The position numbers and the translations under genes were made by a program. From positions 57,765,249-57,829,248 of the forward strand of contig NC_088295.1 in NCBI RefSeq assembly GCF_032854445.1: DNA of 64,000 nt, written 5' to 3'. The notes under the pieces were generated by a model. The model had not been told where the DNA came from. It searched no databases and worked only from the letters and a program-made list of their open reading frames with translations. This document shows, piece by piece, positions 38,521-64,000 of the stretch. Numbering within the stretch: the stretch's first letter is position 1; the number at the start of each line of letters is the position of its first letter. Origin of the DNA: Liolophura sinensis. Taxonomy: Eukaryota; Mollusca; Polyplacophora; Chitonida; Chitonidae.

Positions 38521-38961
38521 GAATAACACGACGAATGTGATACTGACGAGGATGCAATAAACCACAAAACAACACTTGACAGCAGGAGTTAATCGGACTA
38601 CAACCAGACCAGAAATTTCAAAGAGGAGTGACAACAACGTGACAGCCCAACTGGTAGTCGCGGTCGAAGACGAAAGACCGTCTTTTAGTGTGTGTTTTGC
38701 CGTGAAGAATAGGACAGCAAAAGTATTGTTGAACTCTGTACGAAACCGTTTAACATTTCTCGTGCAGATTAATTGTGCGCGCCAGGAGAAATCTGTAATT
38801 ACTACGTTGGCAGGTTAACCCGCTGAGTAAATTTATTCTTGTCGTCTGCTTCAGTGAAATTGATGATGACGTCATCAATGCGACACGGATAAACTGAGGT
38901 TTCCATTGACAACGGTTGCAGCGGAAGAAATGCCTTAAATCGACGAGTAAACCTGACGGGG
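38521..38961 (+). other. 5' UTR segment of the GPCR exon
   Basis: A strong acceptor (TTACTTTTCTCTCCACCAG) ends at 38520, suggesting an upstream non-coding exon. An 80-codon frame (38576-38818) overlaps this leader and may be an upstream ORF; its peptide is unremarkable. Confidence 0.5.
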
Positions 38962-40098
38962 ATGGCGCCAACCCAGCACTACCCCGTGTGGTACGTGGCC
39001 GTTTGTGGCACTGTTTTCGCTGTCGAAGGCGTCGTGGGATTTCTTTTCAATTTAATCGTTCTTGTGGTTTACCATCTGAACAAGAGAACTCTTAAGAGTG
39101 TCAGCAATGTTTTAATCACGAATCTCAACATTATTGACATGTTAATCTCCTTAGTGTGCTGCCCTGTCAGTCTTGCGTACACAGCCACTTCCCGTTTCCA
39201 TGGTCAAGGGCTCTGCTATGTTTTCGAGGCCTCCGTGGCATTCGCCAGCACGGCCAGCGCTGTCAACTTGCTCTTCATCAGTTTTGACAGGTATGAGTCA
39301 ATAGTGGTTCCGATGAAGAGAAAGATTAAAGATACAAATGTGAAATATGTCGTGGCGTCTGTATGGGTGCTGGCAACTGTTGCCGTTCTTCTACCGATTT
39401 TTGGCTATATTGAAGCGGCAGTAGGGTCTGTAATATCCGAAGCCGAAAACCTCAACAGCAGCGTACCGTGTTCTTTTTGGCTTCATGGCTCAAAGGCTTT
39501 CTATGTTCACGAAATGTATTACATTGCCGTCTTTTTAATATCATCTGTCGTGACTATGATTTGTTACTACAAAGTATTCCGTCTTGCCAAACAGAGGCTG
39601 GCACTAAGGATCGCTTTGCTGCGTTCCACCATGACGTTACCAGGGTCCAAACCTTTGATGGATCTAAAAAAGCAGCAAGACAAGAGAGTCACCACCATGA
39701 CGTTAGTGATTGTGTGTACTTTCATTATTTGTTGGGGTCCTAACATGACAATAACCGTGAGCGGATTGTTTATGGAGTCTAATCTATACTTCGAAATGAT
39801 TCAAACTGGCCTTTTGTGCTTAGCATATCTCACAACCGTTCTACATCCGCTTTTGTACGCGTTTTTGAGAGAAAACTTCCGCGAAGCTCTGAGAGACAAA
39901 TGGCGTTCTCGTCCTCAGGTGAGAAACGCCAAGATTTCACCCAACCCGTCGTCATCGACAAACAACGTCAGGTTGTTAGCCGTGCGCCAAATAGACGACC
40001 CGTCTTTGTCGGATTTCCCCACCATCAGCCAACTTGTGTCACCAGTAAACAATGTATCAGTCTCCCTACAAGACGCACTTGTATTTTCCCCGAGGTGA
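38962..40098 (+). CDS. Class A GPCR, GPR22-like orphan receptor
   Basis: A 378-residue protein in a single exon with seven hydrophobic segments. TM1 is near residues 10-36 (GVVGFLFNLIVLVVYHLN). TM2 has SVSNVLITNLNIIDMLISLV. TM3 ends in FDRY (D/ERY motif). TM6 has FIICWGP, the CWxP toggle motif with Gly for the variable position. TM7 ends HPLLYAF in place of NPxxY. Cys residues before TM3 (GLCYVF) and in extracellular loop 2 (VPCSF) can form the usual disulfide, and NSS in loop 2 is a likely N-glycosylation site. HPLLYAF, the SVSN..NL TM2 pattern and EASVAFAS in TM3 are GPR22 features. The ATG has G at -3 and +4. The extracellular N-terminus is very short (about 9 residues). The ligand of this family is unknown. 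Confidence 0.85.
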   Translation: MAPTQHYPVWYVAVCGTVFAVEGVVGFLFNLIVLVVYHLNKRTLKSVSNVLITNLNIIDMLISLVCCPVSLAYTATSRFHGQGLCYVFEASVAFASTASAVNLLFISFDRYESIVVPMKRKIKDTNVKYVVASVWVLATVAVLLPIFGYIEAAVGSVISEAENLNSSVPCSFWLHGSKAFYVHEMYYIAVFLISSVVTMICYYKVFRLAKQRLALRIALLRSTMTLPGSKPLMDLKKQQDKRVTTMTLVIVCTFIICWGPNMTITVSGLFMESNLYFEMIQTGLLCLAYLTTVLHPLLYAFLRENFREALRDKWRSRPQVRNAKISPNPSSSTNNVRLLAVRQIDDPSLSDFPTISQLVSPVNNVSVSLQDALVFSPR

Positions 40099-49705: not shown

Positions 49706-50046
49706 TGAACTTTAATTATATCGATAGGGGCCTGCTTATAACGAGTGTCACCTGTTATTGAGGTGAATAAATATTAATTTATAATAAAAACTTGTCTCAT
49801 AGATAAATTTTGAACCTCACTAATACTGTCACACGATCAAGAATGTATCATCAATTTGTTTATAACCTTTGACTCAGATTACGTCACGTGACCACATCAT
49901 GGATTATCTCGATAAATATAACGGTCCCCAGGTACATATACCTCATTATTGGATAGCATAGGTTCTACAGTAGATTCGCACTAGTATATTCCACAACTGG
50001 GGGAAGGCCGATTAACATTTAAAACAGATACTCTGTTAAGCGCATA

Positions 50047-50155
50047 ACGTCTTTGTCGTGTGGATACTTCGATAGAGTGGGTTCTAAATTTGTTTTGCGG
50101 GCAAAACTTAGTGAGTTCGAATCTCACAAGATCCACTGACGCTGCCCACTATTTT
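50047..50155 (+). ncRNA. Vault RNA-like gene, copy 1
   Basis: About 109 nt. The A-box region GTCGTGTGGATACTTCGATA is identical to copies 2-4. The inner stem GTGGAT/ATCCAC, the D-like hairpin AGAG-TGGG-TTCT, a perfect central hairpin (TTTTG/CAAAA) and the B-box arm GTGAG-TTCGAAT-CTCAC are present, and ATTTTG gives a T4 stop. The outer closing stem (TAACGT with CCACTA) is largely broken, unlike other copies, so it may be decaying. A TTTAAAA box lies 29 nt upstream and TTCCACAACT about 58 nt upstream. In vertebrates such RNAs are Pol III transcripts bound in the vault particle; function here is inferred. Confidence 0.6.
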
Positions 50156-50184
50156 GTCAGGATTCAAATTTCCTTGAACTTTCG

Positions 50185-51059
50185 TGTGCTGACCGACTTA
50201 AATGTTATCTCCAGCAGATAGGAGAAACCACCAGAGCTCTTCTCTCGTAAACCAGGCCGCAGGTACACGAAATGTGGTCATTTTTTCTCCACAATACTAG
50301 GGCCTGTACGCACATGTATTGATATCTGGTGTATAAAAGCCATCGGATTATCTTCGACATCAGCAAACAAGGTGTTTGGGGAATGGCGATTTGTCTCTTG
50401 TCCATGTTAGTTTTGATATGGAAAGCCTATATAAGTATAATGAATCAGCTATAGGTTATATTATGCAAATATTTGTCTTCTTTTAAACTTCTTCGAAATA
50501 TACATGTCACAGAATATACCTTGGGTTTGTGTTAAACGCAGTTTTGGGGAATGGTCGCCTTTTAATCATTGACTTGGAACCTCCTTTTTGGTTGACGACT
50601 GGTACACGAATGTCTGTTTCGGCGCATTTTATTTTGTTATAGCATATACATATTGCAATATTTTGAAATTGTCTGGTGCATCGCCATATTTCTTGAAATG
50701 CTTTCTTTACCGATTGTCTACACCATTCTTATTTGCGAAACCTTTCATATTTTACATCTGTACCCTTGAAATGGCACCCGAAAGCATATTTTAGACATAA
50801 GCGGATATAATTGTTTATTGATTAGTACAGATGGGTTTAATGTGTAATTAATGATTAAAGTAGAAACATTAATATGAATGCTTTAAACGGATAATTAAAT
50901 AATAGATATGAAATAAAGTGATGGTGCAGCAGCGTCATACTGAACATCAAAGCCTGGCTGTGTCAGATACGATAGAGAAACAGACCAATGGCAAGGAACA
51001 ATGGCGTCATGGGAATCAGCGAAGACCATTCTGTATATGGAACTATATGAAGCGGTGTG
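50185..51059. repeat. Segmental duplication, unit 2
   Basis: Parallels unit 1 from ACTTAAATGTTATCTCCAGC to GCAAGGAACAATGGCGTCAT without the two SINE-A insertions. It begins just after vault RNA-like copy 1 and is cut at its right end by the solo-LTR-like insert. Confidence 0.8.
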
Positions 51060-51063
51060 CGTG

Positions 51064-51976
51064 TGTAAGGGTACCACCATGGGAGAGTAAAGAAGAGAAG
51101 CAACTAACTTGTTAAACTCTCAGATAAGCGATAGGCCTTACACAAGACCAAAGAAAGAAACACCAAGACGCTTGAATAAGTTCAATGCATATGTTTTAAC
51201 AAAATAGACAAATAATACAACTGACAATAATATACAAAACAATACAAATAATTACAAAACATATAGTCTCTTACTGATTATAGCGTCTAAATCCAGATGG
51301 AGTATTCCGGCTTAAAACAGTCCACGTAAATATAGAATCCACAGTCACGAGGAATTCCTCAATCGACGGATGACAGGATGACAAGCTGTGGTGGGCACAG
51401 CTCTCCAACGAGGATTTATTCCCCAAATGCCTGTGGAAATGTAACTTCTCAGGGCGGACAGATTGACAGTAGCGTCCGTGATGCCGAGTTGTGGGTGTAT
51501 GTTTCCGCGGAAATATGCAAAAGTCACTTTCAGGGTAAGCTGGTGTGAAATGTAGGTAATCGCACAAAGAGACAATGAGCGATACAAGCTCCGAAATAAA
51601 GTCTCAAAGAATAGCAAGTAACGAAACACAGGTGCTATGTACAGAAAATGGAGTACAAATAACGACTGTCGAATGGCGTGAAAGCCGATATCTCCAAACC
51701 CAGCAAAATCCTTCACAGTGGATGACAGTAAATATTGCTCTTAAGTGGACTTGACTGCTCTCACGTGGACTTGACTAAATAACTGCGAGCTTCATAGTTC
51801 CAGAATGTACACCCTATTTACAATGGCACGAAACGCATAAACACATAAGCCTCGAGAACGCTCTACTGAATTACAGCGCAGGCTATAACGTGCCCAAGGT
51901 TAAATTATAGGTCAGACACTGACAAATAAAAAACCAAAAAAGTATAATACAATGTTTAAAGACGGGGTTTGTAACA
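51064..51976. mobile_element. Candidate solo LTR
   Basis: A 913-bp segment that interrupts the segmental unit. It begins TGTAAGGGTACC, ends GGTTTGTAACA (TG...CA ends with short inverted termini) and is flanked by CGTG on both sides. No gag or pol sequence lies inside. The minus-strand frames of 98 and 123 codons within it have no recognisable domain. Orientation unknown. Confidence 0.5.
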
Positions 51977-52027
51977 CGTGTGCTGTTGAGGGGTGGATCT
52001 GCGTGATTTAGCGATGTGGCTATTGAT

Positions 52028-52292
52028 TGAAGTCGGGAGACCCGAGGTCGTGTCGGGACATACCAAAGACTTTACGGTACTTGTTGTTGCCTCTCTTGGC
52101 GCTTAGCACTGAGAGGTTAGAACAAAGAAACAGAACTGGTAACCCGGTGTCGATATATATCTATATATAATGTGACTGGGAGGGGGCGGCGGCATGGGCT
52201 TGTCCGGCCACAAGAAGGCACAGTATATGTGCACACACCTAATGCCTCCTTGTCGTCATATGACTGAAAAACCGCTCAGCAGGACGTAAAAC
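52028..52292 (+). mobile_element. SINE-B, 5' truncated
   Basis: Matches 54511-54803: GAAGTCGGGAGACCCGAGG, ATACCAAAGACTTTACGGTA, GCACTGAGAGGTTAGAA, CACAAGAAGGCACA and the tail CATATGACTGAAAAACC. Lacks the A-box end. Confidence 0.78.
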
Positions 52293-52294
52293 AA

Positions 52295-52800
52295 ATGTGA
52301 TTTTCTTGAAATACTTTTTTCACCGATTTTCTTTATGTGTGTCTTATTGCACTATGTTTTTCAGCGAATCCATTCATGCCTTATATCTTTACCCGAAAGT
52401 ACATTTAGGCCTACATGTGATGTCGGTAGGGATAGGGGGATATGATTGTTTATGTGATTGATTGGCACAGATGGGTTTAATGTGTAATTAATGATTAATT
52501 TAAAAACATTAGTGTAAATGCTTTAAACAGATAAAGAAAATATTAAATAAAACGATGGTGGAGCTGGTTCACAGTGATCTGCAAAGTGTAGTTGTATCAG
52601 ACACGATGGAACATTAATCGTTGGCAAGGAACGATGGCTCTTTGCGACTGAGCGATGTGGCGACGCTTTTAAATGAAGGAGCGATTTGGCGATTCTATAA
52701 CGATGTGGCGTTGTGTGCTGTTGAGCGATGGGGCAATGTTTTTGAGCGATGGAGCAGCGGTGTGCTTTAGCGATGTGGTCGTAATATTGAGCAATAGAAT
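52295..52800. repeat. Segmental duplication, unit 3 (partial)
   Basis: Begins near TTCTTGAAATACTTTTTTCA, contains GGGTTTAATGTGTAATTAAT and GGCAAGGAACGATGGCTC, and runs into degenerate GAGCGATGG repeats. The minus-strand 98-codon frame (52523-52819) is a product of that repeat. Confidence 0.75.
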
Positions 52801-53155
52801 GACAGGTTCTCTGAGCCACTAGACTTTTTCCACAATAGTCTGTTTAGGAAACTCTAATACAGCTTGAATAGGATATAAAGGCCCATATCTATACCATTAT
52901 ATCTGTATTAGGTCTCCAACTCTAGCTTATGCTCAGTGGGAAAGTCATTGATTTGAGGTTTTTTTTTATAATCTCCTACATATACTACATATCTTGAGAC
53001 ACTACAAACAATTACTCATTCGTAATTATTGCGTGTATACCAGTATATATTGTCCATAACTATTAATATGCATATATTTTCTCATAGCGATGTGACGATG
53101 TGTGCTGTTGAGCGATGGAGCGATACTATAGGGATATGGTAATGATTCTGAGCAG

Positions 53156-53312
53156 ACTTTGAAATCACTTTAAAATTGTTAGGTCTATCTCTTACTTAAC
53201 AGGGTCAAAATATTGCTTGACAACGTAAATTCTTAACAAGTTATTGTAAGACACATTTCATCTAAAATAACGGAAAAGAACATACCAATTAATGATCTCA
53301 ACGGAATTCAGA
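53156..53312. mobile_element. Truncated MITE-like copy related to 54820-55007
   Basis: Shares TTTAAAATTGTTA, TTGACAACG, CATTTCATCTAAAAT and ACGGAAAAGAACATACCAA with the element at 54.8 kb, but lacks recognisable terminal repeats. Confidence 0.7.
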
Positions 53313-53389
53313 CTCTATCTTTTATTCAATTGGAAAATTATTTGACTACCTATCTTTTCTATAAAAAAAATAATAAAAAAAACTTTGCC

Positions 53390-53813
53390 TTGCAAATTCA
53401 TCAAAAGTTCGTGACTGAATGTACATGTCAATGAGGAGTGAACCGCTATCACCAATTAAGGCATTGTACTGTATTTACATCTCGGTCTACATGATTGTCT
53501 TCCACCATCAAATCTGTCATGGCAGCCTGCCATCACATCGTTATCATAACTGTGCACAGTATCAGTACTTACCTTTGAGATATCGATGCATTTATATCTG
53601 CAATGCCTCACCACAGAATTATATTTACATCGAGTAAATTATTTACGCTGTCAACAGCTTATCTCGGTTGGTATAATACGTTCAAGAGGTCATGTGATCA
53701 AGTAGGCCTAAGTCTTGATACGCCGGTAGAGGTCGCTCGCCTGCATGTTTCACAACATTATTTATAGGTCATACACGGCGATTGACTAGTTTAATAACAG
53801 ACTTTAGTACGCG
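53390..53813. repeat. Duplicated 5' flank of vault RNA-like copy 2 (empty site of the LTR element)
   Basis: Aligns with 55470-55737 joined to 59802-59966. Shared words include CGCTATCACCAATTAAGGCA, CAGCTTATCTCGGTTGGT, ATAATACGTTCAAGA and CATACACGGCGATTGACTAG. This copy has ACGCTGTCAACAGCTTATC, where the other copy carries the LTR element. The ORF at 53419-53637 has no support. Confidence 0.82.
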
Positions 53814-53815
53814 TA

Positions 53816-53924
53816 GCGGCTTAGTCGTGTGGATACTTCGATAGAATTGGTTCTAAATTTGCTTGGCATGCGAAACTTAGTGAGTTCGAATCTCACAAGA
53901 TCCACTGACGCTGTCCGCTATTTT
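53816..53924 (+). ncRNA. Vault RNA-like gene, copy 2
   Basis: About 109 nt with all parts intact. The outer stem is TAGCGG/CCGCTA (its first base pair lies just upstream of the annotated start). The A box is TTAGTCGTGTGG, followed by the vault-like word ATACTTCGATAG. The inner stem is GTGGAT/ATCCAC, the D-like hairpin AGAA-TTGG-TTCT, and the central hairpin variable. The B-box arm is GTGAG-TTCGAAT-CTCAC and the 3' strand TGACGCTGTCCGC, ending in T5. TTTAATAA starts 26 nt upstream and TTTCACAACA about 67 nt upstream. The 5' flank is nearly identical to copy 3, and the 3' flank resembles the fragment at 61.5 kb. A normal tRNA is excluded because no 7-bp acceptor stem fits and the sequence extends past both ends into the outer stem. 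Confidence 0.72.
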
Positions 53925-54227
53925 TGTCCTTCCCGTTTTTGCTCTATTAAATAAATAGATGTCAGTCGGTGCTTTTTATAAACACCATGAACATATATTA
54001 CATATCTTGAGACAATACAGCCAATCAGCCATTCACAGTTATTGCATGTATAGCATATTGTCCATAACTATTAACATGAATAATTGTTCTCTGTTTTTCC
54101 CTCACTTACAATTTGTAATTCAGGTCTACTTTTTCCTGGATTTAAAACTTCGCCCTAATATGGAATTTTCAACGTGTCTTCAATACAGACATAATGTATT
54201 CAAAATATATCACTTAAAATAAAGAAG

Positions 54228-54508
54228 GGGGTCTCCGTGGCTCAGAAGGTTAGCGCGCTAGCGCAACATAATGACCCAGGAGCCTCTCACCAATGCGGTC
54301 GCTGTGAGTTCAAGTCCAGCTCATGCTGGCTTCCTCTCCGGCCGTAAGTGGGAAGGTCTTTCAGCAACCTGCGGATGGTTGTGGGTTTTCCCCGTGCGCT
54401 GCCCGGTTTCCACCCACCACAATGCTGGCCGTCGTCGTATAAGTGAAATATTCTTGAGTACGACGTAAAACACCAATCAAATAAATAAATAAATAAAATA
54501 AAATAAAG
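54228..54508 (+). mobile_element. SINE-A, best full-length copy
   Basis: Head GGTCTCCGTGGCTCAGAAGG (A box), GCTGTGAGTTCAAGTCCAGC (B-box region), then GGCTTCCTCTCCGGCCGTAA, CAACCTGCGGATGGTTGTGG, CCACAATGCTGGCCGTCGTC and the tail AACACCAATCAAATAAATAA. The A and B boxes mark a tRNA-derived, Pol III-type SINE. No RNA similar to the vault-like loci. Confidence 0.93.
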
Positions 54509-54510
54509 CA

Positions 54511-54803
54511 GACAGCTTCGGTGGCCTAATGATTAGAGCTTCCCCCCTCGAAGTCGGGAGACATAGGATCAAACCCAGGTAGAGTCATACCAAAGACTTT
54601 ATATTACTTGTTGCTGCCTCGCTTGGCACTGAGCACTGAGAGCTTAAAGAAAGAGTCGGGATGGTTGGTATCATGTGTTTTCGGCAAGATACAATGGCGG
54701 CATGGATTCGCCCTGCCACAAGAAGACACACAATATGCACACACACATAATGACTCCTCGTTGTCAAATGACTAAAAAATTGTTAAGTAGGACGTAAAAC
54801 CAT
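54511..54803 (+). mobile_element. SINE-B, full length
   Basis: tRNA-like head GCTTCGGTGGCCTAATGATT with AGAGCTT, and B-box-like GGATCAAACCCAGG. The body has GTCATACCAAAGACTTTATA and CACAAGAAGACACACAATA. The tail AATGACTAAAAAATTGTTAA plus GTAGGACGTAAAAC resembles the SINE-C tail. Confidence 0.85.
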
Positions 54804-54819
54804 AGGCCCCGGGATCACG

Positions 54820-55007
54820 AAGCGGTCTTAGACTTGAGCGAAAATTTCAAATCACATTAAAATTGTTATTTCTTACGTAACAGGATACAAACTGTTTGAC
54901 AACGCAAATTCTGGGTAAATTATTGTAACACAAATTTCATCTAAAATGACGGAAAAGAACATACCAAGTTTAATGATTGAAAATTTGACTTACGTCTAAG
55001 ATCGCTT
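54820..55007. mobile_element. MITE-like element
   Basis: Ends AAGCGGTCTTAGACTTGAG and ACTTACGTCTAAGATCGCTT are imperfect inverted repeats. The TCTTAGACTT core is shared with the element at 43.6 kb, so they are probably one family. Confidence 0.75.
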
Positions 55008-55189
55008 ACATACATGTAGGCCTACATGTGGTTAAAATAAAGCGAGAATGGGTGTGTGGAAGGGATGTCAGTTTCACAGAAGTTGTTTCCCTTGACACAC
55101 GTCGCCTACTACAAAGTAAAATATTACCATGTACTGTACCATGTTGGTCATTATATTATCCTTGGCTACCATATATTGTAGTATTTTAT

Positions 55190-55350
55190 TTAACTCTACT
55201 GGTCGGTTCCAAGTACTTGTGGCCAAAGGCCTACAGTATTCAAGAATATTTCACTTATAGGACAGCGGCCATCATTATGCTGGAAGGAAACCTGGCAGAT
55301 CTTGGGGGAAACTCACGACCACCCGCAGATTATTGATCATCTATGACTTC
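55190..55350 (-). repeat. Duplicated block containing a SINE-A fragment, partner of 62640-62825
   Basis: GGTCGGTTCCAAGTACTTG, a reverse SINE-A fragment (TTCAAGAATATTTCACTTAT), then GCAGATTATTGATCATCTAT and GACTTCGCGT. The same order recurs at 62.64-62.82 kb, so the junction was duplicated as a block. Confidence 0.8.
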
Positions 55351-55737
55351 GCGTGAATGAGTGATGCTTTCGAATGATGGTGTGATGTGGCGATGCTATG
55401 GAGAGATATAGCCATGTGTGCTATAGAGCGATGTGTGCTTCTGTCAAAAAAAAAAAATAATTGTTCTGCAGATTCGTCAAAATCTCGTGACTTTTACTGA
55501 ATGTACGTGTAAATGCTTAATCGCTATCACCAATCAAGGCACTGCGCTGTATTTACTTGTCGGCCTATATTAATGTCACGCATCATCAGTTCTACCGTAA
55601 CAGCCTGCCATCATACTGTTATTATAATTCTACACAGTATATCAGTGCATGCATGCATGGCGGTCACATGCCAATGCAGTTCTATCTGCCACTCATCACG
55701 ACAGAAGTATATATGTAAAGTGAATTTCTGACGCTAT

Positions 55738-55882
55738 TGCCATATAATGTGGTTACATCTATATGTGAAACGAACTATAGAGATGCAGGATATAGACTGT
55801 ATAGTTATGAGTGACTAGTAAAAGTTGTTTGCAGTTACAGACCGGTGTTCTTCGATAATTTACATGTGTACAACACATGATA
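55738..55882 (+). repeat. 5' LTR (145 bp)
   Basis: Begins TGCCATATAATGTGG and ends CAACACATGATA. Differs from the 3' LTR at one position only (base 3, C versus T). Confidence 0.95.
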
Positions 55883-55898
55883 TGGTGTCAGAGTGGTC
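55883..55898 (+). other. Primer binding site
   Basis: TGGTGTCAGAGTGG immediately follows the LTR and is complementary to a tRNA 3' end of the form ...CTGACACCA, as in leucine tRNAs, with one base absent relative to the usual complement. Confidence 0.75.
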
Positions 55899-55913
55899 AG
55901 ACTAGATAGACGA

Positions 55914-57949
55914 ATGGCCAAGTTCGAACCTCCAGAACCATTTTCGTTCGACAGACCAACGGAATGGATAGAGTGGCGACAAAGGTTCAGTCGCTTCAGA
56001 CACGCGACAAAACTCCACAAGGAAGATGGCGACGTTCAAGTTAGTTCGCTGATCTATGCAATGGGATCACAGTCCGAGGCAATCTTCAAATCGTTTGCTC
56101 TCAATGACAATGACAAGACAGACTATAACAAAGTTCTGCAGAAATTTGATGAACACTTTGTTCCCAAACGAAATGTGATTTTCGAGCGCTGCAGGTTCAA
56201 CAAATGTGTGCAACAAGACGGTGAAAGTGTTGAAACTTTTGTGCGGAATTTGTACACGCTAAGCGAACACTGCGACTTTGGTGATGCCAGAAATCAATAC
56301 ATACGAGACCGACTTGTTATAGGATTATTAGACGGGCAAGTATCGAAACGATTACAAATGAAAACTGACTTAACATTAGATGGTGCAATTGAAACAGCCC
56401 GGCACTCAGAACTAGTTAAAAGTCAGCGAAATGAAATTCGGTCAACCTCAGCATCAGCTGATGCTATACGGGTCACGCAGTCCCGGGCAACGCCTATAGT
56501 CAATGCCAGAGGTAGAGGTAGCCAGTCAAACAGACAAAATACGCGTGGCGGTGCCAGGCCTAGACAGAGACAATCGCAGCAGAAAAATCCAGTCGGTAAT
56601 CGTTGTACCTGTTGTAATTTATTACATGCACGTAATAAATGTCCTGCTAAGAATACGGAGTGTAACAGATGCCACCATATTGGACATTATGAACGATGCT
56701 GTCTAACTAAAAACGTTGACATTGTTACTCATCAGACAAGCCAGCTACATCTTGACAATGGTTATAATTTCCTTGGAGCTGTTAATTGTGTCGACTCACA
56801 GGAACCAGCGTGGACTGTCAATCTTAGAATTCTCAATAAATCGATTAAATTCAAGATTGATTCTGGAGCAGATGTGACAATTATGTGTGAAACCACATAC
56901 AATTCACTGCAGCCTAGACCAGCTCTCAAACCAGCCAGTGCTATGTTAAGCAGTCCCGGCGGAAATCTGACAGTTCGGGGAGAGTTCGAAACCGACATTA
57001 GGCTGAACGACGAGAAATTTACAGTGAACATTTTTGTTGTTTCTGGACCTACACATAACTTGTTGAGCCGTGGAGCAGCAGTTGCCATGGGATTAATCCA
57101 ACGATTGGATGAGATCAACGACAGTGTATTCGGTGATATTGGACTTATGAGGTGCGATCCGGTGAAAATAAAGCTGAAAGAAAACGTCACACCGTACGCA
57201 ATTCATACTGCGCGACGAATACCGATTCCGTTACTACAAAAAGTCGAAGTGGAGTTGAAACGTATGGAACAGTCAGGTGTCATCACAAAGGTTGCCGAAC
57301 CTACAGACTGGTGTGCGCCTATGGTTCCAGTGGTAAAGCCGAATGGCAAAGTGCGCATTTGTGTCGATCTGCGACAGCTCAATAAAGCGATTAAACGCGA
57401 GCGATATACGTTACCGACAATTGACGACGTTCTACACAAGATGGCAAACGCGAAGTACTTTTCGCGACTTGACGCGAGTTCCGGTTTCTATCAAATTCCT
57501 CTTGACGATGAAAGCTCAAAACTAACATGCTTCATGACGCATCTCGGACGATATGCTTTCCGTAGACTCCCGTTTGGAATTTCGAGTGCGCCAGAAATTT
57601 TCACGCGCATCGTTACAGAATTATTAGGTGACCTCGAGGGTACCGCAGTCTTCATGGACGACATATTCGTGGGCGGAGATACTCGCGAATCCCATGACAG
57701 AAATTTAAATAGTGTTTTCGATAGAGTGCGCGAAGCACAGATGACGTTAAATAAGGAGAAATTTGTGCACTGTCAGACAGAAATGGACATATTAGGCCAT
57801 AGACTGGGTGCTGAAGGAATCAGTCCTCACCCCGACAAGGTCAAGGCGATCGTGGACTTAAAGCCGCCTAATGACATTGTAGAATTAAGACGCTTTCTCG
57901 GTATGGTAAATTACCTTGGACAATATGTACCAAACTTATCGGACATGCT
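55914..57949 (+). pseudogene. gag-protease-RT reading frame of the LTR element
   Basis: Starts at ATG 55914 (MAKFEPPEPFSFDRPTEW). The gag capsid-like part runs to about 56570. Two CCHC knuckles follow (CTCC..H....C and CNRC....H....C, near 56600-56705). A protease DSGA motif lies near 56862. RT is recognised by the PNGKVRICVDLRQLN, LDASSGFYQIPL and FMDD motifs (FMDD near 57654) and by LRRFLGMVNYLG at its end. Homology stops at SDML (57949); the frame then runs about 78 codons in the wrong phase through integrase-region DNA. Gag and pol are in one frame, without a visible frameshift site. Confidence 0.9.
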
Positions 57950-57965
57950 GTTCGATTCGATGTCA

Positions 57966-59123
57966 GAGACTGTTAATGCGACTAATGAGATTCAATCCTA
58001 TTGCGGAACATGCATCAGGCAAAACAATGGTGGTAGCCGATACGCTTTCGCGAAGCCCATTGTTAACGACAGAAGACACATCGCTAGAAGAAGACGTCAT
58101 CGCGCATGTAAACGCGGTACGTGCGCATTGGCCAGCATCAGACGCGAAATTAGACAGTTTGCGACAAGCAACCAACGCAGATGAACAACTTTTGACAGTT
58201 ATTCGCTTTGTTCAAAATGGATGGCCTGAACACGCGAGAGATGTACCTGAAAGTATCCGAGATTACTTTTCTGTACATGAGAGACTGAGCACAGTCAATG
58301 GACTTTTGACTTGTGGTATACGTATTGTGGTTCCAGCGAGTTCTCGAGACGAGATCTTGGACCGAATACATGACGGACATTTAGGCATGACTAAGTGCAT
58401 ACAACGGGCCAACCAATCAGTATGGTGGCCAGGATTAACAAAGCAGATCCAGACTAAAGTTGCCCAGTGTTCCTACTGCCAGATAAACAGACCTAGTTTA
58501 CGCAAGGAACCGCTAAAATCAACGCCGTTACCTTCGCGTCCTTGGCAACAGTTAGCCGCAGATATACTGGAATTCAAAAGTAAACATTACTTACTTGTAA
58601 TCGACTACTTTTCGCGATACTTTGAGTTAAAACACGTCCCGCGATTAACCAGTAATGTTACTATTCTCAAGATGAAAGAGATTTTCGCGCGATTCGGAAC
58701 GCCCGAACAACTTATTACTGACAATGGTACCAACTTTGTCTCGCGAGAATTTAGAGAATTCCAAACCGCGTATTGCTTTCAGCATACGACAGTGAGCCCT
58801 CATCATCCTCAGGCAAATGGTGAAGTTGAGAGAGCCGTCGCGACCGCGAAGAAAATATTAGGACAGAAAGATCACTTTCTTGGCCTAATGACTTACCGTT
58901 CTACGCCGACGCAGCCTACAGGATGTAGTCCGGCGGAACTTTTAATGGGAAGACCATTAAAAACAACCCTCCCATTCTCACCGAAAACAACTCCAAGGTG
59001 GCCGAACTTTGAGAGGGTGAGAGAGAATGATGATAGAGCCAAATCGTTGAATGAACGCTACTTCAACGATCGTCATGGTGTACGAGAACTTCCTGAACTG
59101 AAACAGGCGACACGGTTCGTGTA
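57966..59123 (+). pseudogene. Integrase part of the LTR element, out of frame
   Basis: Homology resumes after the deletion in another phase (RLMRFNPIAEHASGKTMV, VADTLSRSPL). An HHCC zinc domain (IHDGHLGM ... CSYC), the catalytic Asp in AADILEF, the second Asp in ITDNGTNFVS and the Glu in NGEVERAV give the DD35E set. With RNase H gone and the frame changed at the junction, this part cannot be made as one polyprotein with RT. The frame stops early at 59122. Confidence 0.9.
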
Positions 59124-59420
59124 AAACTAGACAATGAGAAGGGTTGGGTGACAACGGGAATTGACACAGATAAGCTCCCTACACCGCGATCTTATAATAT
59201 CGAAACGAGCAGAGGCAAATACCGTCGTAACCGTAAGCATTTAAAGCCAGCTCCAGGTATTACTTACGAGATGACCCCACCAGAAGTTGACCCACTTGAT
59301 GACTACATGCAGGAAACCCCTATTGTAGGAAATCAGCCTCAAGCAAATCAGCATAGTGGACGTGAAGTCACGCGCTCTGGACGAGTGGTCCGACCTCCAA
59401 AACGTTACGGATTTGATTGA
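59109..59420 (+). pseudogene. Integrase C-terminal segment, separated by a frameshift
   Basis: From about 59107 coding homology continues one phase over (VKLDNEKGWVTTGIDTDKLP, then YRRNRKHLKPAPG) and ends SGRVVRPPKRYGFD plus stop. The terminal RSGR..RPP.R motif is typical of Ty3-type pol C-termini. A single missing base near 59107 explains the break. Confidence 0.85.
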
Positions 59421-59651
59421 CATTCGTTTCTAGAAGTTCTGAATAAGTTTACAGTTTAGCAGTAGTTAGCAATGTTGCTGTAGTGTAGTCAAAGGACAAT
59501 ACATTTAAAAGTTAATAGGCAACATTGAATTTAGATTTCTTCCATGCAGTTTGCTAGTTTAAGTTTGAAATTATATACTCAAAGACTTTAGTTAACTTCA
59601 GTTAATAGATTTTAGTAGTTGACAAACGTTTGATGGACTTAAGAGGGGAGA

Positions 59652-59796
59652 TGTCATATAATGTGGTTACATCTATATGTGAAACGAACTATAGAGATGC
59701 AGGATATAGACTGTATAGTTATGAGTGACTAGTAAAAGTTGTTTGCAGTTACAGACCGGTGTTCTTCGATAATTTACATGTGTACAACACATGATA
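59652..59796 (+). repeat. 3' LTR (145 bp)
   Basis: Begins TGTCATATAATGTGG after the AAGAGGGGAGA polypurine tract and ends CAACACATGATA, then GCTAT. Confidence 0.95.
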
Positions 59797-59968
59797 GCTA
59801 TCATCAGCTTATCTCGGTTGGTTTATAATACGTTCAAGAAGTCATGTGATCACTTAATTCTGGTTAGGCCGGTAGAGGTCACTCGTTTGCACAGGACATT
59901 TCACCACATTATACTTACAGCTCATACACGGCGATTGACTAGTTTAATAACAGACTTTAGTACGCGTA

Positions 59969-60077
59969 GCGGCTTAGTCGTGTGGATACTTCGATAGAAT
60001 TGGTTCTAAATTAGCTTTGGGCGCGAAACTTAGTGAGTTCGAATCTCACAGGATCCACTGACGCAGTCCGCTATTTT
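59969..60077 (+). ncRNA. Vault RNA-like gene, copy 3
   Basis: Outer stem TAGCGG/CCGCTA, the same A-box word as copy 2, D-like hairpin AGAA-TTGG-TTCT, B-box arm GTGAG-TTCGAAT-CTCAC and inner stem GTGGAT/ATCCAC. The central hairpin differs (AGCTTTGGGCGCGAAAC). It ends in an unusual run of 20 T residues (60074-60093), far more than Pol III needs. The 5' flank, with TTTAATAA 26 nt upstream, matches copy 2, while the 3' flank after the T run (GATTCAAATTTCCTTG) matches copy 1. This is a duplication mosaic rather than retroposition. Confidence 0.7.
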
Positions 60078-60093
60078 TTTTTTTTTTTTTTTT

Positions 60094-61150
60094 GATTCAA
60101 ATTTCCTTGCATTTTGGTGTAAAACCAAGAATTCTCTTTATAATGACTCGTAACGCTTAATCCCTCGGTTCACTCTCGCTGTTCACCTGAAATTGATGGA
60201 AATGTGTGGCAGTATTGCATTTAGGTGATGAAAAATGAAGTTACTTGCAGATTACACGTCTCCAACTATTATGAGTGCGAATGCTAACCTTGAGTTACAA
60301 GAAGTGCAGTACATGTACTTGTCTTCTACATGTAGGCTATATGTCGTGTCACGGATAGGAAAGTTCGTAAGTAACTTGTCAAAGGTGGGGTTTTTAATCC
60401 AGGGCACTCCGGCAAATTTTCTCTCACACATAAAACCGAGCACCATACAGTATACGCCTAAGCGAAGTTTGAGTGTGGCCTTGAACAAATATCAGTCAAT
60501 CAATCAATCGAATGTGCGAATGTGTCATACATATTGATCTGAAGGTGTTAAAATCTATGAGTGACGTGTAGGGAACTCATTCACAAAAGACAAAAGTAGT
60601 GTGATATAAGATGGAGCTTCATGTCTGGCGTCTTCAATAGGCCTACATGCACTGGCACAAATCTTGCCACTTAGATCGGTTTGCTACAAGACGACACCTT
60701 TGTGATGCCACCGAATTACACAAAGCCGCCAACTGGCAATTTAAAACTAAATTTGATGCATGGTGTAAACGTTTTTATATCTGTTGCATATATTTACACA
60801 ACAGATCGAGTTTATGGGTGGTGAACCGCATTTTGCGTCATTTTAGTAGCTTTCGTGTATACCCGTACTAGAAATTATTATTTTACGGTATTCCTTCTTA
60901 TATGTCACGCATATTGTCATTGAGATAGTCCCACCGTTATCAACTCGACTACAGATCTGATGTAATTTATGTTCCGGTTTTTTTGAAAATTTATTTATCA
61001 TTATTTATTTTCTTTTGGGTGGTGAGGAGGAAAGGTAGCTTTATGTAGCTTTTAGTGGTATTGCTGAATGGATTTTCAAGGGAGACAATGATAATACATT
61101 CATGGATGTCTCGAATCGCTGAGGGGAGGTTATCCCCCCTTCATAAAGTG
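60094..61150. other. No gene seen between vault RNA-like copies
   Basis: Short frames only; an AATC repeat at 60498-60512. Part of the 3' flank of copy 3 is shared with copy 1. Confidence 0.55.
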
Positions 61151-61161
61151 TTGCACAACCA
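61151..61161 (+). promoter_or_regulatory. TTGCACAACCA element 56 nt upstream of copy 4
   Basis: Identical 11-mer at the same distance upstream of copy 6 (63133-63143). A related TTCCACAACT lies about 58 nt upstream of copy 1. Position matches a proximal sequence element of Pol III genes with external promoters. Confidence 0.5.
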
Positions 61162-61206
61162 CACTTGTGGAATGACCTAGCAAATGTGAGCACCTACACA
61201 CGTACA

Positions 61207-61315
61207 GCGGCTTAGTCGTGTGGATACTTCGATAGAATTGGTTCTATATTTGCTTGTGGCGCGAAATTTAGTGAGTTCGAATCTCACAATGTCCACTGAC
61301 GCTGTCCGCTGTTTT
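61207..61315 (+). ncRNA. Vault RNA-like gene, copy 4
   Basis: The outer stem is CAGCGG/CCGCTG, a compensated change from TAGCGG/CCGCTA (its first pair again lies just 5' of the annotated start). The A-box region is identical to copy 2. The inner stem is GTGGAT/GTCCAC with a G-U pair. The central hairpin is long (ATTTGC ... GCGAAAT), the B-box arm is perfect, and GTTTTC gives a T4 stop. It has the TTGCACAACCA element 56 nt upstream but only a weak AT-rich patch at the TATA position. Confidence 0.68.
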
Positions 61316-61540
61316 CGCCAAAACGAAACTCAATATTGACTAGGTTAGGCCTATTTTATCAGAAAAGTCTGTTGTCTGAGTAATCCTAGACTATATTCTG
61401 TTAATCCAACATAAAAACTCTATTAGCTTAACAGGAAATTATGTTGGATATCACACAGAAAACAGACTTTCTGTTAAAATTAGCAGATTAATTTTTTTTG
61501 GTGTAGTTCGCGATATTAACTTAACGGTTAATTATACCGA

Positions 61541-61590
61541 TTTAGTGAGTTCGAATCTCACAAGATCCACTGACGCTGTCCGCTATTTTT
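61541..61590 (+). pseudogene. Vault RNA-like 3' fragment (copy 5)
   Basis: Starts TTTAGTGAGTTCGAATCTCA at the B-box arm and continues through ATCCACTGACGCTGTCCGCT to T5. The 5' half is absent. The 3' flank (GTCCTTTCAGTTTTGATTCT, ATTAAATAG) resembles that of copy 2, so it is a truncated duplicate. Confidence 0.75.
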
Positions 61591-62018
61591 GTCCTTTCAG
61601 TTTTGATTCTATTAAATAGCTTGAGTCATTTGTAGTCCTGGATGTCTACGCCACGCTGTTTTTTTTTTTTTTTATTTGTTCTGACGCTTGCATAGTCATG
61701 GCTGGGTCCCCAATGGGAAGAATTGCAAAATTTTGAAAAACAGACAATTACTACCCACCCAGTCACTCCTATACATTGCCCCGGGCACCTGACTGTTAAA
61801 ATCCCGAGATGTAGATCATTCAAATGGAAAATATTCATCCATATTTATTAAAGCCCAGCATCTCCGCTCACTTTTCATTTACGAAATGGCCGCCATCTAT
61901 ATGGCGCACATGTGCCGCTAGGCAGCATAAAATCAAGTGAGTACTTAATTCGCTGGAGATGCAATGAATGAAAGCCAGAACACCGTTATATAAATAAAAC
62001 TTCTGGGGTACGGCGATG

Positions 62019-62021
<3 letters not shown>

Positions 62022-62087
<66 letters not shown>
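62022..62087. repeat. (TA)n microsatellite
   Basis: About 66 bp of alternating T and A. Confidence 0.97.
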
Positions 62088-62088
<1 letters not shown>

Positions 62089-62178
62089 CCTATACATTAG
62101 ATGAAGTTACATAGAGTGTGAAACGTCTTTAATGAAGTTGTATAGGAAGGTGCGCGACTTAATTATAATTATTATTAC

Positions 62179-62294
62179 AACAAGCTTGCTCATGGTTAGG
62201 CTACAGGTTAAAGTATAAGGCTATACGACCAGAGCCGTGCTAGCCATCACGAGTTCAAAACTCACCTTAACCACTCACTATGTCCAATTCTTTT
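62179..62294 (+). ncRNA. Divergent vault RNA-like copy (copy 7)
   Basis: The 3' 44 nt align without gaps to copy 2 (about 31 identities). GAGTTC..A.CTCAC, CCACT.AC and TGTCC are shared, and a TTTT stop follows. The 5' part has GCTCATGGTTA.GCTACAGG, close to the vertebrate vault RNA A-box region. The inner stem TGGTTA/TAACCA is fully paired although its sequence differs from GTGGAT/ATCCAC. The outer stem is not evident. The 5' end is set by analogy. Confidence 0.45.
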
Positions 62295-62639
62295 ATTTAT
62301 TTTTAACTGCAAAGGTCTCCTTCTATATTGAAAAGACCACATTACTGTGTCCATAATTTTTTTTTGTCAATATTTTTTTCACAGAAATAAGAACAAAAAC
62401 TAATATTTTCTGTTAGATCGGTGTTTACGATGTTTTAAGATTCATATAAAGATATACAGAAATTCTTCCTCCTTTTCGCATGTTTGCACGGTATTTATTT
62501 TGCATATTCTGGAGGCATTATTCTGTGTTACCTGATAAAATTAAACACTAAGTGAAGGCCTGGCACAGGCACTTCAGTAGAGCAAAGTAATTAAAATACT
62601 ACAATATATATGGTACCTTAGGTTATCATACTATCCTAG

Positions 62640-62825
62640 GCTATCGTATACAGTCGGTTCCAAGTTCCTGATGCCATAAGCCTGCAGTATCGAAGAGTAT
62701 TTCTCTGACACTTAAACGACGGTGGGTAGATTTATTTAGAAAGCGGGGAAACCGGCTAGAACGTGGGGAAACCCACGGCCATCTGCAGATTATTGGTCAT
62801 ATATGATTTCGCGTACAACAATTTC
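62640..62825 (-). repeat. Duplicated block containing a SINE-A fragment, partner of 55190-55350
   Basis: CAGTCGGTTCCAAGTTCCTG, a reverse SINE-A remnant, then GCAGATTATTGGTCATATAT and GATTTCGCGT. Ties the 62-63 kb vault-like copies to the 46-55 kb array. Confidence 0.78.
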
Positions 62826-63188
62826 CAGCATGTATAGATTTCTCTTTCACAAATGCTTTCATTGGGTTATCTGAACGTGTACAAGATGCATGTTGATTTA
62901 ACCAGATAGGGCTATAATGCTCATGCCAAAGGGCCGGAGATATGATTTAAGACGAAAAGGCAATTATAATGATCGGCGAGATCTAGAAGTACATGAGATC
63001 TAAATTAGGTGCTATCTTCTCTAAAAGTCACTTCATAATATCAGGCATGATTTTTCGGTGATTTGAGGGAGTGAACATGCTGTTGGGTTGTTACCTCCCC
63101 TGGATCGTCTCAGTGACGTCACGATCTCGGGCTTGCACAACCAGGCCACTCGTGGTTAAGAGCTTATTTTAGCTACCGCAAACCTTGT

Positions 63189-63298
63189 GTTGGCTTAGTC
63201 GTGTGGGTACTTCGCAGATACTGATCTACAATTGACTGTCACTCAATTCAACATGGGTTCGAATCCCATAGAATCCACTGACGCTGTCCAGCACTTTT
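63189..63298 (+). ncRNA. Vault RNA-like gene, copy 6 (divergent, structurally complete)
   Basis: The sequence differs from copies 1-4 in every stem, yet the stems stay paired. The outer stem is TGTTGG/CCAGCA, the inner GTGGGT/ATCCAC, the D-like hairpin AGAT-ACTG-ATCT, the central hairpin AATTGA/TCAATT with a 7-nt loop, and the B-box arm ATGGG-TTCGAAT-CCCAT. The T run is seven long. TTATTTTA starts 25 nt upstream and TTGCACAACCA lies 56 nt upstream. The GGCTTAGTCGTGTGG A box and the ATCCACTGACGCTGTCC 3' strand are conserved. The central loop could be misread as a tRNA anticodon (GTC), but the D loop is far too short and the outer stem argues against a tRNA. Confidence 0.72.
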
Positions 63299-63301
63299 TT
63301 T

Positions 63302-63889: not shown

Positions 63890-64000
63890 ATATTTATTTA
63901 TTTATTTATCCGATTGGTGTTTTACGCCGTACTTAAGAATACTTCACTTATACGACAGCGCCAACATTATGGTGAGAGGAAACCAGGCACAGCCTGGAGG
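63890..64000 (-). mobile_element. SINE-A, continuing past the window
   Basis: TTATTTATCCGATTGGTGTT, TTACGCCGTACTTAAGAATA and the ATTATGGTGAGAGGAAACC core, reaching the window end. Confidence 0.9.

What the first reader, a model, noticed from the sequence alone, without database searches (positions are those of the whole stretch)
49989..63301. Tandemly expanded vault RNA-like gene cluster in a probable mollusc
Six copies plus one fragment of a ~110-nt Pol III-type unit lie on the plus strand within 13.4 kb. Seen directly: A box, an ATACTTCGATAG word, B-box arm, GACGCTGTCC-type 3' strand, T run, and nested outer and inner stems. From knowledge of the family: vault RNAs have a closed terminal stem, an A box followed by TTACTTCGAC-like sequence, a B box near the 3' end and a short T stop. 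Vertebrate loci are also small tandem clusters. As far as I recall, vault RNAs outside deuterostomes are poorly characterised, so a protostome cluster would be of real interest. That these RNAs bind vault particles is an inference.
Basis: partly seen in the sequence, partly recalled or inferred. Interest (0 to 1): 0.92.

Follow-up and report, generated by a model that had tools for sequence, protein, structure and literature searches.

The report
Vault RNA gene cluster in chiton
A chiton chromosome carries a small cluster of genes for vault RNA, the short RNA first found in the cell's giant barrel-shaped vault particles; this RNA was already known from a few molluscs and worms, so the cluster is a genuine but expected new example.

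Summary
Four window copies match Rfam Vault (RF00006) end to end at 49-53 bits (cut-off 34). The count needs correcting: the window holds 4 intact genes, 1 damaged full-length copy, one 3'-half fragment and one decayed remnant. Three more intact genes lie 4.5-10 kb past the window end, making 7 in 20 kb. Genome-wide Rfam, unit and pattern searches found no copy elsewhere, so this is not a SINE. Outer stem, inner stem and B-box arm keep pairing through paired changes. Scaffold count and longest scaffold match the chiton Liolophura japonica assembly. The genome encodes major vault protein; TEP1 was not found, but the test was weak. Vault RNAs of a limpet, a leech and flatworms, and a fluke cluster, are already in print, so this is a new member of a known kind. 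New details: an upstream TTGCACAACC element whose four exact copies in 80 kb all lie at vault genes, and a 76-77-nt core that folds tRNA-like in 4 of 7 intact copies. Expression and vault binding are untested.

The parts
53813..53925 (+). intact vault RNA gene A2
   Evidence: RF00006 53.1 bits, full model; 7 of 7 outer-stem pairs
59966..60078 (+). intact vault RNA gene A3
   Evidence: RF00006 50.1 bits; 94% identical to A2; 7 of 7 outer-stem pairs
61204..61316 (+). intact vault RNA gene A4
   Evidence: RF00006 49.2 bits; 92% to A2; outer stem ACAGCGG/CCGCTGT against A2 GTAGCGG/CCGCTAT, both fully paired
63187..63298 (+). intact vault RNA gene B1, second subfamily
   Evidence: RF00006 53.4 bits; 72% to A2; outer stem GTGTTGG/CCAGCAC fully paired
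50044..50156 (+). damaged vault RNA copy A1, probably a pseudogene
   Evidence: 24.7 bits, below the cut-off of 34; 3 of 7 outer-stem pairs broken on the alignment; box A region altered; 89% to A2
61542..61590 (+). 3'-half fragment, identical to A2 positions 65-113, no 5' half
   Evidence: 100% over 49 nt
62250..62308 (+). decayed 3' remnant (B-box arm and T run)
   Evidence: 66% to the reference copy over 59 nt; no Vault match up to E = 1
63191..63201 (+). box A of B1 (TGGCTTAGTCG)
   Evidence: sequence; the box A consensus is recalled
63253..63269 (+). B-box arm of B1: 5-bp stem, 7-nt loop TTCGAAT
   Evidence: sequence and fold; this arm pairs in 97.4% of cells over 8 copies
63133..63142 (+). 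upstream element TTGCACAACC at -54 of B1
61151..61160 (+). upstream element TTGCACAACC at -53 of A4
63114..63121 (.). CRE palindrome TGACGTCA upstream of B1
   Evidence: also upstream of gene C outside the window; 2 of 7 intact genes
63164..63172 (+). TATA-like TTATTTTAG shared by B1, B2 and C (3 of 7 intact genes)
   Evidence: upstream sequences printed, read by eye

Best explanation
This is the vault RNA gene cluster of a chiton, most likely Liolophura japonica. RNA polymerase III would transcribe each intact unit from internal boxes A and B, helped by upstream sequence, and stop at the T run, giving an RNA of about 110 nt whose ends close into a panhandle. Some of that RNA would sit in vault particles built from the genome's major vault protein, and most would probably work free of the particle, as reported for vertebrates. 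Shown here: family match, paired-change support for the stems, promoter boxes and terminators by sequence, a single locus, and an MVP gene. Inferred: transcription, particle association and any function.
For: RF00006 hits 4 copies in the window and 7 in the genome at 48.2-53.4 bits against a cut-off of 34, all over model 1-99. The 7 intact copies all have 7 of 7 outer-stem pairs. On the 8-copy alignment 89.8% of 254 cells pair and 15 of 32 pairs have changes on both sides; 0 of 500 shuffles reach either value. Genome-wide, the A2 unit finds 7 places (5 intact genes, A1 and the fragment) and an 18-nt motif finds 7 places (the 7 intact genes), all in this cluster. Units are 60-94% alike in 21 of 21 pairs of intact copies, above the best of 60 random pairs (0.53), while far upstream flanks stay within the random range in 18 of 21 pairs. 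MVP exons lie on C6 near 60.625-60.641 Mb. Host match: longest scaffold 96,433,062 and 632 scaffolds.
Against: No expression data. TEP1, thought to bind vault RNA at the particle caps, was not found: TEP1_N gave no match (and its control rang nowhere), and the two TROVE matches read to me as Ro60-like. The tRNA model also matches 3 of 7 intact copies above its cut-off, one of them only with permissive filters. Human vault RNA is mostly outside vaults (PMC7058938 passages), so a vault role should not be assumed. The structure counted was drawn from copy A2, so its controls lean towards it.
Confidence: 0.93

Rival explanations
1. The units are tRNA-derived genes or a tRNA-derived SINE whose boxes A and B mimic a vault RNA.
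For: Rfam tRNA matches B1 (38.4 bits), B2 (29.4) and, with permissive filters only, A4 (37.1) above its cut-off of 29, and A2 (26.2) below it. The core between the outer stems is 76-77 nt in 6 of 7 intact copies and folds as a cloverleaf in 4 of 7.
Against: Vault scores exceed tRNA scores in each copy where both are listed. ARAGORN finds no tRNA in the window. Copies were found at one locus only in 609 Mb, unlike a SINE. The outer panhandle with paired changes lies outside any tRNA.
Confidence: 0.04
2. The cluster is a set of decaying vault pseudogenes, with the expressed genes elsewhere.
For: A1, the 3' half and the 62250 remnant are damaged.
Against: The 7 other copies keep all 7 outer-stem pairs despite sequence change, and no other locus is found in the genome; the Rfam search scored only 49 of 33,507 first-look candidates, so it is a lower bound.
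Confidence: 0.03

Closest known systems
Vault RNA family, Rfam RF00006, including Lottia gigantea (mollusc) and Helobdella robusta (annelid) members
   Same: Full-length covariance match, panhandle, box A followed by TACTTCG, B-box arm, T stop; the Lottia and Helobdella members are named in PMC8824774 passages
   Different: No library paper holds both 'vault RNA' and 'Liolophura'. The B-box arm is a full 5-bp stem with a 7-nt loop in 5 of 7 intact copies (C has one mismatch, D is irregular), and the middle folds tRNA-like in 4 of 7. I had no Lottia sequence to compare.
Fasciola hepatica vault RNAs
   Same: Lophotrochozoan cluster: 4 of 5 putative genes in 133.3 kb (PMC8824774 passages)
   Different: Here 7 intact genes in 20 kb. 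The fluke genes have expression data; these do not.
Human VTRNA1 cluster
   Same: Small cluster of paralogues with internal boxes and upstream elements; [quoted passage not shown]
   Different: Human neighbours are ZMAT2 and protocadherins. Here, by my reading of open frames, an RRM protein gene like PSPC1 and an MYM zinc finger gene lie downstream; no family search was run on these.

Membership tests
Vault RNA (RF00006) | Covariance model score above curated cut-off | tested here: met
   7 of 8 full-length copies, 48.2-53.4 bits against 34; A1 fails with 24.7
Vault RNA (RF00006) | Closed terminal stem (panhandle) | tested here: met
   7 of 7 pairs in 7 of 8 copies; A1 keeps 4 of 7; 5 of 7 pairs show changes on both sides
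Vault RNA (RF00006) | Box A followed by TACTTCG, B box, T-run terminator | tested here: met
   TACTTCG in 8 of 8 and GTTCRAATC in 8 of 8 copies; a run of at least 4 T at or just after the unit end in 8 of 8, in C after an interrupted TTTC
Vault RNA (RF00006) | Transcribed by RNA polymerase III | not testable with these tools
   no RNA data
Vault RNA (RF00006) | Physical association with vault particles | not testable with these tools
   an MVP gene is present, which is necessary but not sufficient
Vault RNA (RF00006) | TEP1 present as RNA-binding partner | tested here: inconclusive
   TEP1_N: 0 matches, control uninformative; TROVE: 2 matches, both Ro60-like by my reading
Vault RNA (vertebrate type promoter) | External elements: CRE-like element and proximal sequence element | tested here: inconclusive
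   CRE at 2 of 7 intact genes; the TTGCACAACC element shows no clear match to 6 snRNA-type promoters of this genome: one U6, four U1, one MRP
tRNA | tRNA model above cut-off and tRNA finder call | tested here: not met
   model above cut-off in 3 of 7 intact copies, one only with permissive filters, below Vault each time; ARAGORN 0 in the window. Both were asked for; the second fails. B2, C and D were not given to ARAGORN
tRNA-derived SINE | Many dispersed copies | tested here: not met
   all 7 unit matches and all 7 pattern matches at one locus

The most novel reading that the evidence does not exclude
Chiton vault RNAs are tRNA-like cloverleaves of 76-77 nt carried inside an extra panhandle. 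The T-arm and an anticodon-like stem would be kept by paired changes, including what reads as an inserted A-U pair between the close paralogues B1 and B2. If so, vault RNAs would descend from, or mimic, a tRNA. The cluster would also have its own upstream control element, TTGCACAACC, distinct from the snRNA element.
Probability: 0.2. Interest if true: 0.6.

Novelty: new member of a known kind. Interest (0 to 1): 0.42.

Why it matters
Vault particles are large and widespread but their job is unsettled, and much of the work on their RNA is in vertebrates (my general knowledge). A compact, intact 7-gene set in a chiton gives a clean reference for what is ancient in vault RNA (panhandle, box A with TACTTCG, B-box arm, 3' strand) and what varies (the middle). 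It also gives a testable upstream element. It does not by itself change the picture, because mollusc vault RNAs were already in Rfam.

Tried and rejected
SINE and tRNA readings: rejected on copy number, Vault over tRNA scores and the outer stem.

The upstream element as the snRNA PSE: a 22-nt profile from 5 vault genes (A4, B1, B2, C, D) was scored on upstream stretches of one U6, four U1 and one MRP gene; fractions of the null at least as high were 0.056 (U1_C7b), 0.15, 0.31, 0.33, 0.52 and 0.89. Not supported, and the profile is small. The second U6 match on C12 looked degenerate and was left out.

CRE conservation: 2 of 7 intact genes (B1, C). 10 distinct CRE palindromes lie in the 119,752 bp scanned against 1.5 expected, so the region is CRE-rich and the two are only suggestive. 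B2, the closest relative of B1, lacks it; A1 has a CRE-like TTACGTCA much further up (-161).

Deuterostome host: rejected by the assembly match; the mitochondrial order around cox1 and reading by code 5 fit a lophotrochozoan (gene names and the comparison are my recall).

Vault RNA synteny with protocadherins: none recognised by eye in the open frames printed for the 55 kb downstream of the window, with no family search on them; eight window open frames were given to Pfam and one matched (7tm_1).

A first pairing count for A1 was out of register by one base; the alignment gives 4 of 7 outer-stem pairs, which is the figure used.

Literature: seven library searches for vault RNA with molluscs, invertebrates, oyster, lophotrochozoans and deuterostomes, Lottia/Capitella/chiton/gastropod, Liolophura, or its evolution and one on promoters. 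Searches asked for any two terms and listed 25 of 2,180 and 12 of 1,366 papers, so they say little; one search listed 30 of 61. I saw passages of PMC2770079, PMC8824774, PMC11067881, PMC10493277, PMC13404743, PMC7058938 and PMC11068029; the other listed papers, among them the mussel proteome paper PMC5302490 that holds 'vault RNA' once, were seen as listings only. Stadler 2009 and Mosig 2009 were not read, only seen cited.
Full report
What is there. The window is C1:57765249-57829248 of a 609,464,459-base genome in 632 contigs. Rfam RF00006 (Vault) hits four plus-strand units over the full model: 53813-53925, 59966-60078, 61204-61316 and 63187-63298, at 53.1, 50.1, 49.2 and 53.4 bits against a cut-off of 34. 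A fifth full-length unit at 50044-50156 scores 24.7 and breaks 3 of 7 outer-stem pairs. A 3' half at 61542-61590 is identical to A2 over 49 nt, and a weaker 3' remnant lies near 62250-62308.

Beyond the window. Three further intact copies lie 4.5 to 10 kb past the window end: D at C1:57833784-57833914 (+, 48.2 bits), B2 at 57836766-57836878 (-, 52.8) and C at 57839270-57839382 (+, 50.8). The seven intact genes span 57819061-57839382, about 20 kb. No other Vault match was found from 57,805,001 to 57,885,000. Genome-wide, the Rfam search gives these 7 only (49 of 33,507 first-look candidates scored, so a lower bound). The A2 unit finds 7 places: A2, A3, A4, B1, B2, A1 and the fragment, but not C or D. 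The exact motif AGTCNNGTGGRTACTTCG occurs 7 times, once in each intact gene and nowhere else (the reversed control pattern matched once).

Structure. Four subfamilies (A, B, C, D) differ by up to about 40%, which makes the comparison informative. The outer stem reads GTAGCGG/CCGCTAT (A2, A3), ACAGCGG/CCGCTGT (A4), GTGTTGG/CCAGCAC (B1), GTACTGG/CCAGTAC (B2), GTACTGG/CCAGTGC (C) and GTATTGG/CCAATAC (D): 7 of 7 pairs in 7 of 7 intact copies. With my structure of 32 pairs on all 8 full-length copies, A1 included, 89.8% of 254 cells pair, 15 pairs have changes on both sides (shuffled mean 8.6), and the covariation score is 0.358 (shuffled 0.200); none of 500 shuffles reached these three values, and 9 of 500 reached the number of further pair types (29). 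Sliding the partners by 1 to 3 columns drops pairing to 33-47%. The structure was taken from A2, so these controls lean towards it. Outer stem, inner stem and B-box arm pair in 94.6, 98.8 and 97.4% of cells; the three short middle helices only in 69-79%. RNAalifold, given the same alignment but not the structure, returns the outer stem, inner stem, the anticodon-like arm and the B-box arm, with 12 of 28 pairs compensated; it does not return the D-like arm.

Units against flanks. In a simple pairwise alignment of the 7 intact copies (21 pairs), units are 0.60-0.94 alike, all above the best of 60 random pairs (0.53). Far upstream (-300 to -71), 18 of 21 pairs stay at or below the random maximum of 0.51; the exceptions are A2-A3 (0.67), A3-D and A4-B2 (0.56 each). 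Near upstream (-70 to -1), 14 of 21 stay at or below the random maximum of 0.57; the seven above are A2-A3 (0.90), B2-C (0.70), B1-B2 (0.69), A3-B2 and A4-B1 (0.60), A2-B2 and B1-C (0.59). Downstream all 21 are at most 0.51, where random pairs average 0.16 but one reached 0.96. The measure is crude: free end gaps make it jumpy.

The middle. Between the outer stems the core is 76-77 nt in 6 of 7 intact copies and 95 nt in D. In A2, A4, B1 and B2 the lowest-energy fold is a four-way cloverleaf-like form; A3, C and D fold otherwise. The Rfam tRNA model (cut-off 29) scores B1 38.4 and B2 29.4 at the gathering threshold; with permissive filters on the window it adds A4 37.1, which the default filters had missed, and A2 26.2, below the cut-off; A3 is not listed. 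B2, C and D were searched at the gathering threshold only, and C and D are not listed. Between B1 and B2, 88-89% alike, the anticodon-like stem reads AATTGA/TCAATT and AATATG/CATATT; I read this most simply as an inserted A-U pair, although the fold of B2 shows a 9-nt loop. This may be a tRNA-like fold or only a shared T-arm; human and mouse probing reports an open central region (PMC7058938 passages).

Upstream. TTGCACAACC occurs exactly four times on both strands of 80 kb, expected 0.30, and all four are upstream of vault genes: A4 (-53), B1 (-54), B2 (-54) and D (-64). C has an 8 of 10 match at -54, A1 at -55 and A2 at -65; A3 has only 7 of 10, at -79. So 4 of 7 intact genes have it exactly. 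A4 and D belong to subfamilies other than B and their far upstream flanks mostly do not align with B (A4-B2 at 0.56 is the exception), which points to selection rather than recent copying. It shows no clear match to U6, U1 or MRP upstream stretches of the same genome. B1, B2 and C share CTTATTTTAG at -24 to -15 (by eye). A perfect CRE lies upstream of B1 and C only.

Host and partners. Longest contig 96,433,062 bases, 632 contigs and the 31,077,156-base contig C12 match the Liolophura japonica assembly tables; total length differs slightly, 609,464,459 against 609,495,693 (PMC11068029 passages). MVP: shoulder domain at C6:60625569-60625706 (35.4 bits), two MVP repeats at 60639347 and 60634173, and two open frames whose PDB matches at E up to 0.001 are Major vault protein, 6 of 6 and 7 of 7. 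TEP1: not found, weak test.

What is known. [quoted passage not shown] PMC8824774 (passages) names Lottia gigantea and Helobdella robusta in Rfam, Macrostomum, and reports five expressed putative Fasciola genes, four in 133.3 kb. PMC11067881 (one passage) lists Vault RNA in Hydractinia by Rfam. So the family, its presence in molluscs and its clustering in protostomes were known. The chiton assembly paper has no occurrence of 'non-coding' or 'tRNA' in its main text, and no library paper holds both 'vault RNA' and 'Liolophura'.

Verdict. A true, largely intact vault RNA cluster in a chiton; the sequence and structure features of the family that I tested are met, while transcription and particle binding could not be tested. 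It is a new member of a known kind. The tRNA-like core and the upstream element are the parts worth a specialist's time, and both need sequences from other molluscs.

Noticed in passing
55738-59796: LTR retroelement between vault copies A2 and A3: direct repeats 55738-55882 and 59652-59796 are 99% alike over 145 nt, enclosing gag-pol-like open frames 55881-58184 and 57910-59124 (gene reading is mine). The likeness of the repeats suggests a recent insertion.
   Followed up: no
38893-40098: Open frame with a rhodopsin-family G protein-coupled receptor domain, Pfam 7tm_1, E 1.8e-33.
   Followed up: partly
L023 (C238:49-3155): C238 is a tandem array with a period of about 1,402 bases holding 47 U6 matches at identical score; 5S rRNA-like sequence, by my reading, lies in each repeat unit. 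Most U1 matches are likewise in a long array on C10.
   Followed up: no
L062 (C99): C99 holds seven cox1 matches about 15.5 kb apart, so it looks like a head-to-tail concatemer of the mitochondrial genome in the assembly.
   Followed up: no
L068 and L069: Two TROVE-domain frames, 558 aa on C6 and 241 aa on C13, both Ro60-like by my reading, so the RNA-binding Ro60 protein may be duplicated.
   Followed up: no
63929-63960 and 55236-55267: Two copies of a 32-nt stretch, 88% alike. A similar translated string recurs in several open frames downstream (by eye), so probably a common dispersed repeat of this genome.
   Followed up: no
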